Shown in pieces: positions 121 through 51,330 of a stretch of 58,144 nucleotides of DNA. Source of the DNA: an uncultured Clostridia bacterium. GTDB taxonomy: Bacteria > Bacillota > Clostridia > Christensenellales > Borkfalkiaceae. The translations under genes and the position numbers were made by a program. The notes under the pieces were generated by a model that saw only the letters and a program-made list of their open reading frames with translations, did no database searches and was not told where the DNA came from. The stretch covers positions 1 through 58,144 of the forward strand of contig CALVPX010000006.1 in the NCBI GenBank assembly GCA_944354265.1, read 5' to 3'. Within the stretch, counting starts at the first letter, position 1. Each line of letters begins with the position of its first letter.

Positions 121-218
121 TTGCCCGTCAGAGACGGGCAAACTTCACAAAAGCCGAGAGGCTTTTACTTCACAGCGCAGTGCGCTACTTCACACGCGGT
201 TATGTCTGCGTACTTCAC
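121..218. repeat. Hairpin array 1 with ACTTCAC linkers
   Basis: Four short hairpins (121-141, 149-166, 174-186, 194-211) are each followed by the same heptamer ACTTCAC (142-148, 167-173, 187-193, 212-218). Stems differ completely from one another but remain self-complementary, for example AAAAGCCgagaGGCTTTT and AGCGCagtGCGCT. The linker is the reverse complement of GTGAAGT in array 5 (33782-33860), which even contains the same AAAAGCC/GGCTTTT stem. Confidence 0.85.
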
Positions 219-226
219 TTCTTAAG

Positions 227-401
227 ACTTCGTTTGGGAGATTTCTCCACTTCGCGCAATTATTGCGCTTCTCGTGTGGCGTAAGGACAACGCCACACTC
301 GGTCACCGCTCGCACGTTATTAGGTGCTCGCTCATCTCACAACGCTCAAACAGTGGGTAACCACTGTTTGAAGAACAGCGTTGTTCGTCGGTCGAAATGA
401 C
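227..401. repeat. A repeat (GTCATTTCGA family) interrupted by a B element
   Basis: The half-units GGGAGATTTCTCC and GGTCGAAATGAC of the A family are seen, but the second is displaced by a B element at 271-389. An intact copy such as 2453-2572 shows what the undisrupted arm looks like. A repeats are the commonest intergenic element in this window. Confidence 0.8.
271..389 (-). ncRNA. B element copy 1: structured ~120-nt repeat
   Basis: Read on the minus strand, this starts GACGAACAACGC and ends CACACGAGAAG. Constant blocks GAGATGAG, CGGTGACCGAG and TCCTTAC are shared with copies at 24025 and 30231. Predicted stems are CAACGC/GCGTTG enclosing a perfect CAAACAGTGG/CCACTGTTTG hairpin, then GAGCAC/GTGC, then GTGTGGCG/CGCCACAC. 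Stem sequences change in a compensatory way between copies. It is inserted inside an A repeat, so it has been mobile. No ORF is linked. Whether it acts as RNA is inference. Confidence 0.65.
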
Positions 402-465
402 AGGGTAAGGGGTTGGGCAGGCTTGGTCGAGATGACGCACTTAATTTTTCGACCAACATTATAAT

Positions 466-9023: not shown

Positions 9024-9144
9024 ACGCCCCTTTGTCATTTCGACCAACGCGGAGAAATCTCGGAGCTACCATTGTCCGTCGCTTCGCTCCGAGATCTTTC
9101 GACTGCGCTCAAGATGACAATGGTAGCGACGGACAAAGGGGCGT
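9024..9144. repeat. A repeat with 13-bp matching flanks
   Basis: ACGCCCCTTTGTC (9024-9036) and its exact complement GACAAAGGGGCGT (9132-9144) bracket A-family half-units. Inside is the CTACCATTGTC/GACAATGGTAG pair also seen at 995, 33959 and 51206. A further A half-unit follows near 9160-9195. Confidence 0.8.
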
Positions 9145-9225
9145 AAAAGTACAACTTCGTTCACGCAGATTTCTCGGCTGCGCTCGAAATGACGGTAGCC
9201 AAGCTAAAGAATTTTATAAAATACT

Positions 9226-9911: not shown

Positions 9912-9927
9912 ATAGTGGTTCCGCTTT

Positions 9928-10041
9928 GTCATTTCGAGCGAAGGGCGAAGCACGCAGTCGAGAAATCTCCCAAACGAAGTCAAACTCCGTTCACGCAGAT
10001 TTCTCCACGCGCCCGTCTGCGGCGGACTTGGTCGAAATGAC
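9928..10041. repeat. A repeat
   Basis: GTCATTTCGAGCG ... GAGAAATCTCCCAAACGAAG ... GCAGATTTCTCC ... GGTCGAAATGAC: a full A unit between convergent genes. Confidence 0.8.
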
Positions 10042-23684: not shown

Positions 23685-23694
23685 TCCGGTAAAT

Positions 23695-23893
23695 GCGCGG
23701 GATATGCCCGCGCGTGAAATACGCCTTTGGCGTGTGAAATGCCGCCTCTACCTCTAACAACGATTGGCCTCAGCACAGGGCGGCGTGAAATGCAACCCTT
23801 TGGGTTGCGTTGCGGTGAGAGACATGCGCACTTTGTGCGCTAAACATAATGTAAAAATATCGCTCAGGTTGTGCGTTGCACAACCTGAGCGAT
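23695..23893. repeat. Hairpin array 4 with GTGAAAT linkers
   Basis: Linkers GTGAAAT at 23714, 23734 and 23785 separate the hairpins GCGCGGGatatGCCCGCGC-type (23695-23713), ACGCCtttGGCGT (23721-23733), GCCGCC...GGCGGC (opened by a ~30-nt insert) and GCAACCCtttGGGTTGC (23792-23808). GCGCActttGTGCGC and a perfect 16-bp hairpin (23859-23893) follow. The gene-free stretch 23565-24196 is made entirely of such hairpins plus a C and a B element. Confidence 0.8.
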
Positions 23894-23925: not shown

Positions 23926-24022
23926 CTTTTGGGGCAAAGGCCCCAATTTGCGCATACCTGCGCCTCAGCGGGGTGAATTGCCGCGATTATTTAATCGTGG
24001 GCTAAATCAAATCGCGGCAAGA
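23926..24022 (-). repeat. C element copy 3
   Basis: On the minus strand: CTCTTGCCGCGATT ... AATCGCGGCAATTCAC ... GCGCAGGTATGCGC, AAATTGGGG. Relative to copies at 30118 and 51008, the CCGCGAC/GTCGCGG stem reads CCGCGAT/ATCGCGG, a compensatory change. A B element lies immediately beside it. Confidence 0.65.
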
Positions 24023-24024
24023 GG

Positions 24025-24146
24025 GACGAACAACGCACTTCTGCAAATAGTGGTCACCCACTGTTTGCGCGTTGTGAGATGAGCGAGCACCTAACAACGT
24101 GCGAGCGGTGACCGAGTGCGGCGTTGTCCTTACGCCGCACGAGAAG
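24025..24146 (+). ncRNA. B element copy 2: structured ~120-nt repeat
   Basis: Starts GACGAACAACGC and ends CGCACGAGAAG. It is close to copy 1 (271-389) but one stem reads GTGCGGCG/CGCCGCAC instead of GTGTGGCG/CGCCACAC, a compensatory T-A to C-G change. Constant loops GAGATGAG, CGGTGACCGAG and TCCTTAC are kept. Confidence 0.65.
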
Positions 24147-24196
24147 GCCCTAAAATAACGGCGAGTTGGTGCATATCCTCCTATGCACAACGAGCG

Positions 24197-25609
24197 TTAA
24201 AATCCAAAATACTCTTTCGCGTTATTGTAGCAGACGTCCTCTACTATCTTGCCCAAAGTTTCAAGCTCTTCCTTGGGATACTGTCCGTTTTCAACCAAAT
24301 GGCCGAGCATTTGGCAGAGCAGTCTGCGGTAGAGTTCGTGGCGGGGATATGAGAGGAAGGAACGGCTGTCAGTGAGCATGCCGACCGACTGTGCGATGAG
24401 GCCGACCTGCATGAGCGTCTCCAAATTCTGCTTCATGCCGTCGAGCTGATCGAGGAACCACCACGCTGTGCCGACCTGAACGCGACCCTTTACGCCCTCC
24501 TTTTGGAAGCAGCCTGCAAGGACTGTGAGCGCATAGTTGTCGCGGGGGTTGAGGCAATACAAAATTGTCTTGGGCAGGGCGTCCTGCTCGTCGAGGGCAC
24601 CGAGGAGGGCGGACAGTTTTTCCATGTAGACCGCATCCTCAATGGCGTCGAAGCCCGTATCGGGGCCGATTTTCTTGAGCATGGACTTGGAGTTGTTGCG
24701 GAGAGCTCCGATGTGGTACTGCTGTACCCAACCGTACTTTACATACTGCTTGCCGAGGAAGAGAAGGATGTAACCCTTGTACTTATCCTGCTCCTCATCG
24801 GAGATGTCCTCGCCCTTTAGGCCCTTCTGATATATAGCGTTTGCCTCCTCATAGGTTGCGGGGGCGTAGTGAACGACGTCGAGGGCGTGGTCGGAGAGCT
24901 TGGAGCCCATGGAGTCGAAGAAGGCTATTCTCTCTGCGAGGGCGCCTGTGAAGTCCTCAAGCGTGGGCAGTTCGCGGCCGACGACGGCGGCGAGCTGTGC
25001 CACCCAATCCTTGAACCACGAAAGCTCTACATTTATGGCCTTGTCGGGTCTGAATGCGGGACGGACGCTGACCTTCAAGGTGGGATCCTCGTTCATCTTC
25101 TTGTGCCATTCGAGCGAGTCGACGGGGTCATCCGTCGTGCACACCGTCTTGACGTTGAACTTTTCCATCATCTTGCGGGCGGTGAGAGTTTCGAGAACTT
25201 TGTTGGCCTCGTCCCATATCTTCTTAGCGTTCTTGGGGCAGATGACGTCGTTTATGCCGAAATACCTCTGCATTTCGAGGTGCGACCACAGATACAGGGG
25301 ATTGCCCACAAAGTAGGGCATGGACTCGACGAACTGCATATACTTTTTGTAGTCGTCGTCGGGACCGGAGATGGAGTCCTCCTCGTATCCCCTTGCGCGG
25401 AGGGCGCGCCACTTGTAGTGGTCGCCAAACCTGTCGCCCGCACCAAGCCATACCTCGGTGAGGTTGCGGAACTTTTTGTCCTCGTAGATCTCCTTGGGAG
25501 GAAGATGGCAATGGTAGTCGATTATGGGCATGTCTTCGGCATGCTCGTGATAGAGTTTTTTGGCAGTTTCGGTGTCAAGCAAAAAATCTTTATCCATAAA
25601 AGCTTTCAT
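24197..25609 (-). CDS. uxaC: Uronate isomerase
   Basis: A 470-residue amidohydrolase-superfamily enzyme converting D-galacturonate to tagaturonate and D-glucuronate to fructuronate. The metal-binding motif IDYHCHLPPKEI is near residue 30, with further conserved blocks such as TTDDPVDSLEWH and RPDKA downstream. Length is normal. Its ATG shares one base with the uxaA stop (TAATG), so translation is coupled. First enzyme of the galacturonate branch. Confidence 0.97.
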   Translation of the reverse strand: MKAFMDKDFLLDTETAKKLYHEHAEDMPIIDYHCHLPPKEIYEDKKFRNLTEVWLGAGDRFGDHYKWRALRARGYEEDSISGPDDDYKKYMQFVESMPYFVGNPLYLWSHLEMQRYFGINDVICPKNAKKIWDEANKVLETLTARKMMEKFNVKTVCTTDDPVDSLEWHKKMNEDPTLKVSVRPAFRPDKAINVELSWFKDWVAQLAAVVGRELPTLEDFTGALAERIAFFDSMGSKLSDHALDVVHYAPATYEEANAIYQKGLKGEDISDEEQDKYKGYILLFLGKQYVKYGWVQQYHIGALRNNSKSMLKKIGPDTGFDAIEDAVYMEKLSALLGALDEQDALPKTILYCLNPRDNYALTVLAGCFQKEGVKGRVQVGTAWWFLDQLDGMKQNLETLMQVGLIAQSVGMLTDSRSFLSYPRHELYRRLLCQMLGHLVENGQYPKEELETLGKIVEDVCYNNAKEYFGF

Positions 25610-30117: not shown

Positions 30118-30390
30118 GCGACTTTTCGTGATTTTGAGGAGCCCGCTCCTCTTGTCGCGACCTTATGATAGCACTCATATTATATAGTCGCGGCAATTCA
30201 CCACGGTGAGCCGCAGGTATGCGCAAATTGTGACGAGCAAGGTTTTCTCAAAACAGCATACTATGCTGTTTTGCCTTGCGAGATGAGTGAGGGCATCAGG
30301 TCGCCCGAACGGTGACCGAGGCGGCTGCCCTCCTTACTGCCGCCGAGAAAGCTAACGGGGAAGTGAATTCCCCTCGTAACGTTAATTATT
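30118..30390 (+). repeat. C element copy 1 interrupted by a B element
   Basis: GAGGAGCccGCTCCTC hairpin, CTTGTCGCGACC ... GGTCGCGG-type stem, AATTCAC, then GCAAATTG. The B element at 30231-30350 splits it before GGGGaagtgaattCCCC. Copy 2 at 51008 shows the uninterrupted form. Confidence 0.65.
30231..30350 (+). ncRNA. B element copy 3: diverged stems, same loops
   Basis: Compared with copies 1 and 2 almost every stem is different yet still pairs: GCAAGG/CCTTGC, AAACAGCATA/TATGCTGTTT, GGGC/GCCC (was GCAC/GTGC) and GGCGGC/GCCGCC. The single-stranded blocks GAGATGAG, CGGTGACCGAG, TCCTTAC and GAGAA are kept. This is the strongest covariation evidence that the folded form is what is conserved. Confidence 0.7.
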
Positions 30391-30436
30391 TTATTTTCAC
30401 AAAAGTCTTGGTTAGCGCTGTTCGCCGCCTCTTACT

Positions 30437-30566
30437 GTCATTTCGACCGAAGTGAGCCTGCGCGAACGGAGCGGAGAAATCTCCCAAACGAAGTCGTATT
30501 CTCCCTTTTGTCCGTCGCTATGCTCCGAGATTTCTCCACGTTGGTCGAAATGACAAAAGGGAGAAT
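30437..30566. repeat. A repeat with 15-bp matching flanks
   Basis: A first half-unit (GTCATTTCGACC...GGAGAAATCTCCC) is followed by a second one bracketed by ATTCTCCCTTTTGTC (30498-30512) and the exact complement GACAAAAGGGAGAAT (30552-30566). Confidence 0.8.
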
Positions 30567-38349: not shown

Positions 38350-38414
38350 ATACCACGGATTAGTGAAAGTACTTCCTGTCATTTCAACTAAGCCCGCCGC
38401 AATTCCCCACCTTT

Positions 38415-38704
38415 GTCATTTCGACCGAAGCACCCGCAGGGTGCGAAGTGGAGAAATCTGCGTGAACGCAGTTCCTCCAACCGTCATCTTGAGTGGAGCG
38501 AATGTAATGAGCGCAATCGAAAGATCTTGTTTAATGTCATATCCTGCAAGATACATTCGACTACGGGCTGTCGCCCTTCGCTCAGTATGACTTGATTTTT
38601 ATAAAACTTTCATAACTTCGTTTGGGGGATTTCTCCGCTTCGGCGCGTTCCGCACCTTCGGTCGAAATGACAACAGGGGCGCACTAAAAGGTGCGCCCCT
38701 GTTG
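38415..38704. repeat. A repeat split by an A' repeat, then a GC hairpin
   Basis: The first A half (GTCATTTCGACCGAAG...GAGAAATCTGCG) and the second half (38616-38671, ending GGTCGAAATGAC) are separated by an A' unit at 38483-38591. A 14-bp hairpin CAACAGGGGCGCAC/GTGCGCCCCTGTTG follows. A D hairpin lies near 38768-38812. These make up the gene-free stretch 38295-38961; the last ~130 bp hold only minor hairpins. Confidence 0.75.
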
Positions 38705-39857: not shown

Positions 39858-40041
39858 GTCATGTTGAGCGGAGGTGTAAGCGATAGCGCGCACCGCAGTC
39901 GAAACATCTTGCTCGGTTTTTTGCCCCGCAAGATACATTCGACTCCGCCTTCGGCTACGCTCAGTATGACAATAAGGTGCATAACTTCGTTTGGGGGATT
40001 TCTCCGCTTCGGCGCGTTCCGCACCTTCGGTCGAAATGACA
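39858..40041. repeat. A' repeat followed by an A half-unit
   Basis: GTCATGTTGAGCGGAG...GCTCAGTATGAC (39858-39970), then an A half-unit ending GGTCGAAATGAC. The last ~60 bases match those at 38613-38672 almost exactly, so the A'+A-half combination has been copied as one block. With the hairpin at 40109 it fills the gap 39718-40213. Confidence 0.75.
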
Positions 40042-47243: not shown

Positions 47244-47395
47244 AAAATAATTTGCTTAAATGGAGTTTTTTTCCATTAATATAATAGATATAGTCAACTT
47301 AAGGAAACAACTTATTGAGGTGAGTATCTTGCGCGGCTTTGCCACATAAACCTACCATAATGCGCGACGGAAGGATTCACTTGCCCCCCTCCCTT

Positions 47396-47511
47396 GTCAT
47401 TTCGACCAAGCCCGCCTTTAGCGGGCGCGTGGAGAAATCTGCGTGAATGTAATTAGGACTCCGTTTGGGAGATTTCTCGACTACAGGCTACGCCCTACGC
47501 TCGAAATGACA
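47396..47511. repeat. A repeat
   Basis: GTCATTTCGACCAAG...GGAGAAATCTGCGTGAATG...CCGTTTGGGAGATTTCTCG...CTCGAAATGAC. Together with the two flanking hairpins it accounts for the gene-free stretch 47191-47586; an unassigned A/T-rich part lies near 47250-47390. Confidence 0.8.
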
Positions 47512-51007: not shown

Positions 51008-51140
51008 GCGCCACGCGCTCTTGCCGCGACCTTAAATAGCCCACATATAATATAGTCGCGGCAATTCACTGTGCTGAGGCTGCTGACCGCAGCAAATTGG
51101 GGCTACTTCGGGGAAATCAATTCCCCTCGTAACGTAATTA
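51008..51140 (+). repeat. C element copy 2 (uninterrupted)
   Basis: GAGCGCcacGCGCTC hairpin, CTTGCCGCGACC ... TAGTCGCGGCAATTCAC, GCTGCtgaccGCAGC, AAATTGGGG, and GGGGaaatcaattCCCC. Versus copy 1 the first hairpin changes from GAGGAGC/GCTCCTC to GAGCGC/GCGCTC with pairing kept. It fills half of the gene-free stretch 50952-51375. Confidence 0.7.
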
Positions 51141-51205
51141 AAAGAATATGTTGCGGCGCAACGAGGGCAGAACCTCTTAAAACTTGTGCGCCTTTCTCCC
51201 TTTGT

Positions 51206-51330
51206 CATTTCGACCAAGCCCGCCAAAGGTGGGCGCGTGGAGAAATCTCGGAGCTACCATTGTCGCGCCTATTGCGCAGATTTCTCGACTTGCGCTCGAA
51301 ATGACAATGGTAGCGACGGACAAGGCTATA
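51206..51330. repeat. A repeat upstream of rarA
   Basis: GTCATTTCGACC, GGAGAAATCTC, CTACCATTGTC/GACAATGGTAG and TCGAAATGAC in the same order as at 995-1108 and 9024-9144. GCCCGCaaGCGGGC follows just before the rarA ribosome binding site. Confidence 0.8.

What the first reader, a model, noticed from the sequence alone, without database searches (positions are those of the whole stretch)
24025..24146. B element: a mobile ~120-nt repeat whose stems covary between copies
Three copies (271-389 minus, 24025-24146, 30231-30350) keep the same unpaired blocks (GAGATGAG, CGGTGACCGAG, TCCTTAC, GAGAA) while at least four stems change sequence and still pair: GTGTGGCG/CGCCACAC, GTGCGGCG/CGCCGCAC, GGCGGC/GCCGCC; GCAC/GTGC versus GGGC/GCCC; and two nested 5' hairpins. 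One copy sits inside an A repeat and another inside a C repeat, so it moves. Selection on folding plus mobility without an ORF fits a non-autonomous structured RNA or DNA element. I cannot match it to a known family.
Basis: partly seen in the sequence, partly recalled or inferred. Interest (0 to 1): 0.82.

Follow-up and report, generated by a model that had tools for sequence, protein, structure and literature searches.

The report
Folded mobile repeat nesting in repeats
A roughly 120-base non-coding DNA module, present in dozens of copies in one genus of gut Clostridia, sits inside other small repeats and keeps the same folded shape while its letters change; it looks mobile, but what moves it, and whether it works as DNA or as RNA, is unknown.

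Summary
The three window copies belong to a family with at least 44 copies in this 1.75-Mb Clostridia genome and matches in 52 of 61 genomes sampled from its genus, 34 of 121 from its family and 13 of 248 from its order; in a 299-genome phylum sample only the window's own genome matched. With more copies the covariation is overwhelming: 29-30 of 31 consensus pairs change on both sides, and 0 of 500 shuffles reach the covariation score. In most copies each helix base carries a tandem GA/GA mismatch closed by pairs that covary. Mobility is supported: for 57 of 138 copies an unoccupied counterpart of the host repeat was found, with 2-4 bases where the module sits in 50 of 57. I saw no target duplication, terminal inverted repeat, Rfam match or clear strand bias. 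Y1, IS110, resolvase and reverse-transcriptase families do not track it. G.T pairs are rare (2-3% against 12% in SRP RNA of the same genus), which leans towards a DNA-level element; folding energies do not discriminate and slightly favour RNA. I read it as a non-autonomous structured mobile DNA module, a new family of a known broad kind with an unusual architecture.

The parts
24025..24144 (+). B element, copy 2 (the finding)
   Evidence: CM R1 137.6 bits (the model was built from this and 26 other copies)
270..389 (-). B element, copy 1
   Evidence: CM R1 139 bits
30232..30348 (+). B element, copy 3 (GCAAGG-class helix 1)
   Evidence: CM R1 105.5 bits
24027..24078 (+). helix 1 of copy 2: C-GA-ACAACGC ... 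GCGTTGT-GA-G with an inner hairpin and a 5' bulge TTCT
   Evidence: covariation; DNA minimum-energy fold; limits checked
24083..24106 (+). helix 2 of copy 2: GC-GA-GCAC ... GTGC-GA-GC
   Evidence: limits checked
24113..24143 (+). helix 4 of copy 2: C-GA-GTGCGGCG, loop with CCTTAC, CGCCGCAC-GA-G
   Evidence: limits checked
238..402 (-). A-type host repeat holding copy 1 (TGTCATTTCGACC at 402-390; AGCGCAATAATTGCGCGAAGTGGAGAAATCTC at 269-238)
   Evidence: unoccupied relatives at window 2572-2513 and 9927-9981
23978..24200 (+). C-type host repeat holding copy 2 (approximate limits)
   Evidence: unoccupied relative at window 51080-50987
30152..30383 (+). C-type host repeat holding copy 3 (approximate limits)
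   Evidence: repeats D12 and D19 shared with 51036-51135
51022..51140 (+). C-type repeat without B (unoccupied counterpart; approximate limits)

Best explanation
B is a non-autonomous mobile DNA module of about 118 bases. It folds as one strand (the GA-containing one) into three main hairpin domains, each based on a 5'-YGAR-3' tandem G.A/A.G step closed by one or two covarying pairs, with fixed linkers ATGA and GGTGAC. It spreads mainly into other small stem-loop repeats, at purine-rich sites (..RG^G..), replacing about 2-4 target bases, and it can then also be amplified together with its host repeat. An enzyme supplied in trans, not identified, probably recognises the folded strand; this keeps Watson-Crick complementarity and the linkers while the stems drift. 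Shown: the family, the fold by covariation, unoccupied sites, distribution. Inferred: that the folded form is DNA, and that an enzyme reads it.
For: Copies: 27 by BLAST and 44 by CM in G000. Covariation. YGAR at helix bases in 122-140 of 163 copies per position, the closing pairs C.G/T.A covarying. Unoccupied sites: 65 of 88 copies, 95 of 140, and 57 of 138 with both flanks aligned separately (54 distinct loci); clean cases are L008 against L021 (100% over 46 bases) and L044 against L041 (97% over 116). Head-to-tail units about 118 bases apart in L084 and L080. Wobble test: G.T 2.4-3.0% of pair cells in B against 12.1% in SRP RNA of 30 genomes of the genus by the same procedure, and 6.6% in 35 tRNAs; in CM alignments G.T 35 and A.C 80 of 3565 (outer part of helix 1 left out). 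No clear orientation bias in 73 of the 80 matches: 32 of 73 on the G-rich strand, 39 of 73 on the main coding strand.
Against: Folding energies do not favour DNA: consensus pairs have mean probability 0.718 with RNA and 0.689 with DNA parameters, and the top strand beats the bottom strand only with RNA parameters (101 of 154; with DNA 77 of 154). In the MAFFT-based count G.T still exceeds A.C (20:5 and 21:8). With DNA parameters one of three window copies (30232) also departs from the consensus. No enzyme family tested tracks the copies: G044 (27 copies, 91% complete) has no match at E <= 0.001 to Y1_Tnp, RVT_1, IS110, Resolvase or PF05635. My idea that B enters unpaired helix junctions was not borne out: sites are more paired than other GAs nearby (0.26 against 0.45 unpaired, 80 distinct sites), and flanks do not close a stem around B within 20 bases.
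Confidence: 0.55

Rival explanations
1. B acts as RNA: a transcribed structured RNA copied back into DNA (a SINE-like or intron-like retroelement using a reverse transcriptase in trans), the fold being selected in the transcript.
For: The GA-strand folds slightly better with RNA parameters than its complement (101 of 154); tandem sheared GA steps are common in RNA (recalled); RVT_1 proteins occur in 25 of 61 genomes of the genus, the window's own among them.
Against: RVT_1 has no match in B-rich G002, G006, G016, G044 and G055. G.T is four to five times rarer than in SRP RNA of the same genus. No clear orientation bias to genes. For two of three window copies the RNA minimum-energy fold is not the consensus fold.
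Confidence: 0.2
2. B has no mobility of its own: it is an optional domain of larger composite repeats, spread by amplification of the composites and by recombination or template switching between similar repeats.
For: In G192 and G263 groups of copies share the same host sequence on both sides, so host and B were amplified together. No target duplication. Tandem units exist.
Against: Copies 89-97% identical to copy 2 over their whole length sit in A-, C- and E-type hosts of the same genome, and one copy of a relative sits in a tRNA-Arg gene fragment (L083).
Confidence: 0.15
3. The covariation is not selection but a by-product of replication: template switching within imperfect hairpins rewrites one arm as the exact complement of the other.
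For: Watson-Crick pairs dominate and wobble is rare; hosts are hairpin-rich.
Against: The unpaired linkers, the bulge and, in 110 of 163 copies, the loop are conserved across copies whose stems differ, and single closing pairs outside the tandem GA covary too, which arm rewriting need not do.
Confidence: 0.07
4. B is a cis-acting regulatory RNA (attenuator or riboswitch).
For: A multi-helix structured RNA-like consensus. The nearest upstream ORF runs the same way for 43 of 71 copies, a weak excess (binomial p 0.10).
Against: Dozens of copies per genome without a consistent orientation: of 73 copies, the nearest downstream ORF runs the same way for 36 and the other way for 35 (2 without). The identity of the neighbouring genes was not compared.
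Confidence: 0.03

Closest known systems
REP/BIME elements mobilised by RAYT (Y1 HUH) transposases
   Same: Small, high-copy, non-coding, hairpin-forming, non-autonomous, no target duplication (features of REPs recalled).
   Different: About 118 bases with three GA-based helices instead of single palindromes; Y1_Tnp has no match in several B-rich genomes.
MITEs
   Same: Non-autonomous, high copy, dispersed.
   Different: No terminal inverted repeats and no target duplication seen.
Gut-1 RNA (RF01706)
   Same: Covarying multi-hairpin motif of gut bacteria with GA-rich linkers; two sub-threshold Gut-1-like stretches lie near B copies in the window.
   Different: Different sequence and fold; B itself does not match. 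Listed among likely noncoding RNAs, human gut only, in PMC2864571 (passages seen).
Rickettsia palindromic elements (recalled; titles and abstract starts only)
   Same: Palindromic dispersed elements of 100-150 bases (recalled).
   Different: Typically described inside ORFs (recalled); no sequence comparison made.
HEARO/OMEGA RNAs and group II introns
   Same: Mobile structured RNAs that exist without an ORF (recalled).
   Different: No Rfam match at gathering score or at E up to 0.1 on B in the window; that Rfam holds these families is recalled.

Membership tests
REP element (RAYT system) | Y1 HUH transposase in the same genome | tested here: not met
   PF01797 has no match in G002, G006, G014, G016, G038 and G044, which hold 27-59 B matches; one match in the window's own genome, with no B in the 3.4 kb fetched around it. 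These are draft genomes 81-97% complete.
REP element (RAYT system) | GTAG/GGAG tetranucleotide 5' of the hairpin (recalled) | not tested
   only the flank composition was tabulated
MITE | terminal inverted repeats | tested here: not met
   140 copies: 5' GACGA in 107, 3' CGAGA/TGAGA in 131; these ends are not reverse complements of each other
MITE | target-site duplication | tested here: not met
   57 unoccupied sites: 2-4 bases between the flanks in 50 of 57, first base G in 52 of 57, beginning GA in 18 of 57; apart from that possible shared G or GA no duplication
HEARO / OMEGA RNA | match to the Rfam covariance model (its presence in Rfam recalled) | tested here: not met
   no match on B in the window or in the seven loci scanned
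HEARO / OMEGA RNA | IscB ORF beside some copies | not tested
   no IscB search was made
Group II intron | intron RNA match, or reverse transcriptase tracking the copies | tested here: not met
   no Rfam match on B; RVT_1 without a match in several B-rich genomes
IS110-type element with bridge RNA | DEDD recombinase in the genome | tested here: not met
   PF01548 at E <= 0.001 in 4 of 61 genomes of the genus, over its cut-off in 1
Gut-1 RNA | match to RF01706 | tested here: not met
   matches lie at 137-220 and 23686-23745, not on B, and are below the gathering score
Non-autonomous structured mobile repeat (broad kind) | multi-copy, conserved fold, occupied and unoccupied sites, no split form carrying an ORF | tested here: met

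The most novel reading that the evidence does not exclude
B is a folded single-stranded DNA module that parasitises other DNA repeats: mobility depends on a three-domain fold built on tandem sheared G.A steps, giving RNA-like covariation in a sequence that works as DNA. Some orphan 'structured RNAs' known only from gut metagenomes might then be DNA elements of the same sort.
Probability: 0.35. Interest if true: 0.8.

Novelty: new variant of a known kind. Interest (0 to 1): 0.58.

Why it matters
Covariation is normally read as proof of a functional RNA. Here very strong covariation occurs in a mobile repeat with few wobble pairs and no consistent gene orientation, so the G.T against A.C ratio becomes a practical test of whether a covarying motif acts as RNA or as DNA. 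The family is also a tractable case of nested mobile repeats in uncultured gut Clostridia, with many occupied and unoccupied sites for finding the enzyme involved.

Tried and rejected
Rejected: (1) insertion at unpaired helix junctions: the sites are less unpaired than other GAs. (2) B capping a closed host stem: no clear excess flank complementarity within 15 or 20 bases, a small excess at 30 (5.10 against 4.70 bases, 91 distinct flank pairs). (3) a GA target duplication: suggested by early pairs, but with flanks aligned separately only 2 of 57 intervals read GA and 18 of 57 begin with GA. (4) HUH, reverse transcriptase, IS110, resolvase or PF05635 proteins as the partner: presence does not track copy number; 14 loci fetched around matches of these families, resolvases excepted, hold no B. 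(5) An autonomous form with an ORF between two B halves: none found in the window and 212 loci, 1.89 Mb, with exact patterns (19 unmatched 5' halves, mostly complete variant copies, none with an unmatched 3' half within 5 kb downstream; the 44 unmatched 3' halves were not listed). (6) Phage, plasmid or viral carriage: no match; the 8 viral pattern hits have no CM match. (7) Replication-strand bias: none seen, but skew is weak in these genomes. (8) Literature: seven searches listed no paper on this element. Only listings and abstract starts were seen, plus passages of PMC2864571; most subscription journals are not held.

Limits: copy numbers are lower bounds (at most 59, 14, 12 and 29 candidates scored per genome). 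One search was given 80 of the 114 genome-contig loci. Rows dropped before counts: the 88 copies are 26 of the 27 of this genome (L019 left out) and 62 of the 70 rows (tandem, cut or weak ones left out); one search used 73 of the 80 matches (the 7 weakest left out); one search used 163 of 169 distinct copies; one search used 154 copies with at least 20 Watson-Crick consensus pairs; one search left out the outer part of helix 1 (G.T 25, A.C 19, other 128 there) and the isolated closing pairs; one search dropped pairs with under 70% standard cells in both sets and used a random 30 of the A2 rows of 110-130 bases, and B is more diverged there (identity 0.69-0.71) than SRP RNA (0.84). Searches contain some loci twice (132 of 140 and 131 of 138 distinct; the 57 rows are 54 distinct loci). 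In R1 one closing pair of helix 4 was mis-set by one column (helix 6, the first pair of helix 5), so 30 of 31 and 29 of 31 are counted over one ill-placed pair. Alignments A2-A4 were fitted to the model. In one search, 14 of 73 copies lie inside and 27 of 73 overlap a mechanical ORF of at least 100 aa; whether these are genes was not tested, so 'intergenic' is not established.

Full report
What is there. A BLAST search of the window's own genome (1.75 Mb, 55 contigs, 86% complete) finds 27 copies at E <= 0.001; a covariance model (R1) built from those 27 finds 44. With R1, 52 of 61 genomes sampled from the genus match, with up to 59 matches each (the scoring cap). In wider samples the counts are 34 of 121 genomes and 7 of 18 genera of the family, 13 of 248 genomes of the order and 1 of 299 of the phylum, that one being the window's own. 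Named relatives are Candidatus Coproplasma species and uncultured Clostridia, many from animal guts. Pattern hits in Streptomyces, Arthrobacter, Rhodobacteraceae and the like have no model match (77 matches over the window, 80 of the 114 pattern loci and 8 viral loci).

Fold. The 27 copies (26 distinct) give 31 pairs, 22 of them changed on both sides. With 74 and 77 distinct rows it is 30 and 29 of 31, the covariation score is 0.61 against 0.21 and 0.19 in shuffles (0 of 500 reach it), and partners slid by 1-3 columns give 0.02-0.13. One of the five measures, the number of further pair types, is not unusual (437 and 59 of 500 shuffles reach it). Alignment to the model leans towards the structure; the MAFFT alignment, not so fitted, shows the same. 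The consensus is [C-GA-H1-GA-G] ATGA [GC-GA-H2-GA-GC] GGTGAC [C-GA-H4-GA-G]. H1 is a long hairpin with a 5' bulge TTCT or TTTCA and occurs in several sequence classes; H4 often carries a loop with C(C/A)TTRC (110 of 163 copies). At each helix base a YGAR/YGAR tandem GA mismatch is kept in 122-140 of 163 copies per position. The closing pairs outside it covary (C.G with T.A at 3-56 and 62-86).

Mobility. B copies sit inside other dispersed repeats. Joined flanks match an unoccupied repeat for 65 of 88 copies and 95 of 140 in the enlarged, partly redundant set. With both flanks aligned separately, 57 of 138 copies (54 distinct loci) show an unoccupied counterpart, with 2-4 bases between the flanks in 50 of 57 and a G first in 52 of 57. 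The left flank is purine-rich: G at -1 in 82%, A or G at -2 in 97% of 140. There is no target duplication beyond a possible shared G or GA, and no terminal inverted repeat. Head-to-tail copies about 118 bases apart occur in L084 and L080. In G192 and G263 host and B have been amplified together as one composite. One copy (L083) lies in a partial tRNA-Arg gene just upstream of the intact gene, by eye between the D-arm and the anticodon arm.

DNA or RNA. In a true RNA of the same genus (SRP RNA; 30 of the 39 genomes that matched, of 46 searched), aligned and folded the same way, 12.1% of pair cells are G.T and 0.7% A.C; in B they are 2.4-3.0% and 0.6-1.1% (on pairs that vary, 9.3% G.T against 2.0-2.7%). 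In the model-fitted alignments G.T is 35 and A.C 80 of 3565 cells in the four best-anchored helices, although part of the A.C count seems to come from register slips near the H1 loop. tRNAs give 50 G.T of 752 pairs (that method shows no A.C). This leans to Watson-Crick-only constraint, as for DNA. Against it, consensus pairs are slightly more probable with RNA than with DNA parameters (0.718 against 0.689, 154 copies), and the GA strand beats its complement only with RNA parameters. Single folds are mixed: z-scores run from -3.5 to -7.1 as DNA and from -2.7 to -6.0 as RNA over both strands of the three copies; the consensus is the minimum-energy fold of the GA strand for two of three copies as DNA and one of three as RNA. 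There is no bias to GC skew (32 of 73) or to coding direction (39 of 73); the nearest upstream ORF runs the same way for 43 of 71, p 0.10.

Partner. At E <= 0.001 Y1_Tnp is in 18 of 61 genomes, 23S_rRNA_IVP in 17 of 61 (6 over its cut-off), RVT_1 in 25 of 61, IS110 in 4 of 61 (1 over its cut-off) and Resolvase in 54 of 61. None tracks B: G000 has no resolvase, G002 has no Y1 or RVT_1, and G044 has none of the five. In the fetched loci no B split by an ORF was seen. The enzyme may be a family not tested here, may be missing from incomplete drafts, or may have been lost.

Known or not. There is no Rfam match at gathering score, and none on B at E up to 0.1 in the window or in L154, L171 and L172, where only a T-box and a tRNA were found; one search scanned four loci at E up to 5 with no match on B. 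There is no match in phage or plasmid records. Seven literature searches in an open-access library listed nothing on it. Gut-1 RNA is the nearest listed motif in kind, and two sub-threshold Gut-1-like stretches lie 49 bases from copy 1 and 279 bases from copy 2.

Verdict. That B is a mobile, structured, non-autonomous repeat family I hold at about 0.95; that it moves by itself and not only with its hosts at about 0.8; that the selected fold is DNA at about 0.55. It is a new family of a known broad kind with an unusual architecture, and its covariation is a warning for RNA-motif discovery.

Noticed in passing
window 238-402, 2509-2572, 9032-9199, 30435-30560, 38410-38672, 39980-40041, 47391-47482, 51199-51264: A-type host repeats (GTCAT-stem-GA..GA-stem-ATCT) also seem to keep a stem whose letters change (ATTTC/GAAAT, ATACT/AGTAT, ATCTT/AAGAT) next to GA steps, the same grammar as B (by eye, not counted). 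Similar words are recalled from many other bacteria.
   Followed up: partly
window 137-220 (-) and 23686-23745 (+): Sub-threshold Gut-1 RNA matches (31 and 35 bits, cut-off 50): chains of hairpins joined by TGAAAT/TGAAGT, near B copies 1 and 2. Gut-1 may itself be a dispersed repeat.
   Followed up: partly
L083 2615-2841: A partial tRNA-Arg gene interrupted by B, directly upstream of an intact tRNA-Arg(acg) gene.
   Followed up: partly
L084 7566-7803; L080 7587-7859: Head-to-tail B arrays with a period of about 118 bases.
   Followed up: partly
L193-L203 (G192), L205-L209 (G263): Bursts in which B plus the same host sequence on both sides occurs at several places, so composites spread as units.
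   Followed up: partly
L163 6633-6751: A B copy that seems to lie inside a diverged B-like element (unoccupied counterpart at L077 6524-6658).
   Followed up: no
G024:C4, G021:C175, G020:C213, G012:C25 and others: Weak 23S_rRNA_IVP-like proteins close to RVT_1 proteins, probably diversity-generating retroelements with an Avd protein (recalled).
   Followed up: no
L154 7951-8194: A T-box leader (104.6 bits) in a relative's genome.
   Followed up: no
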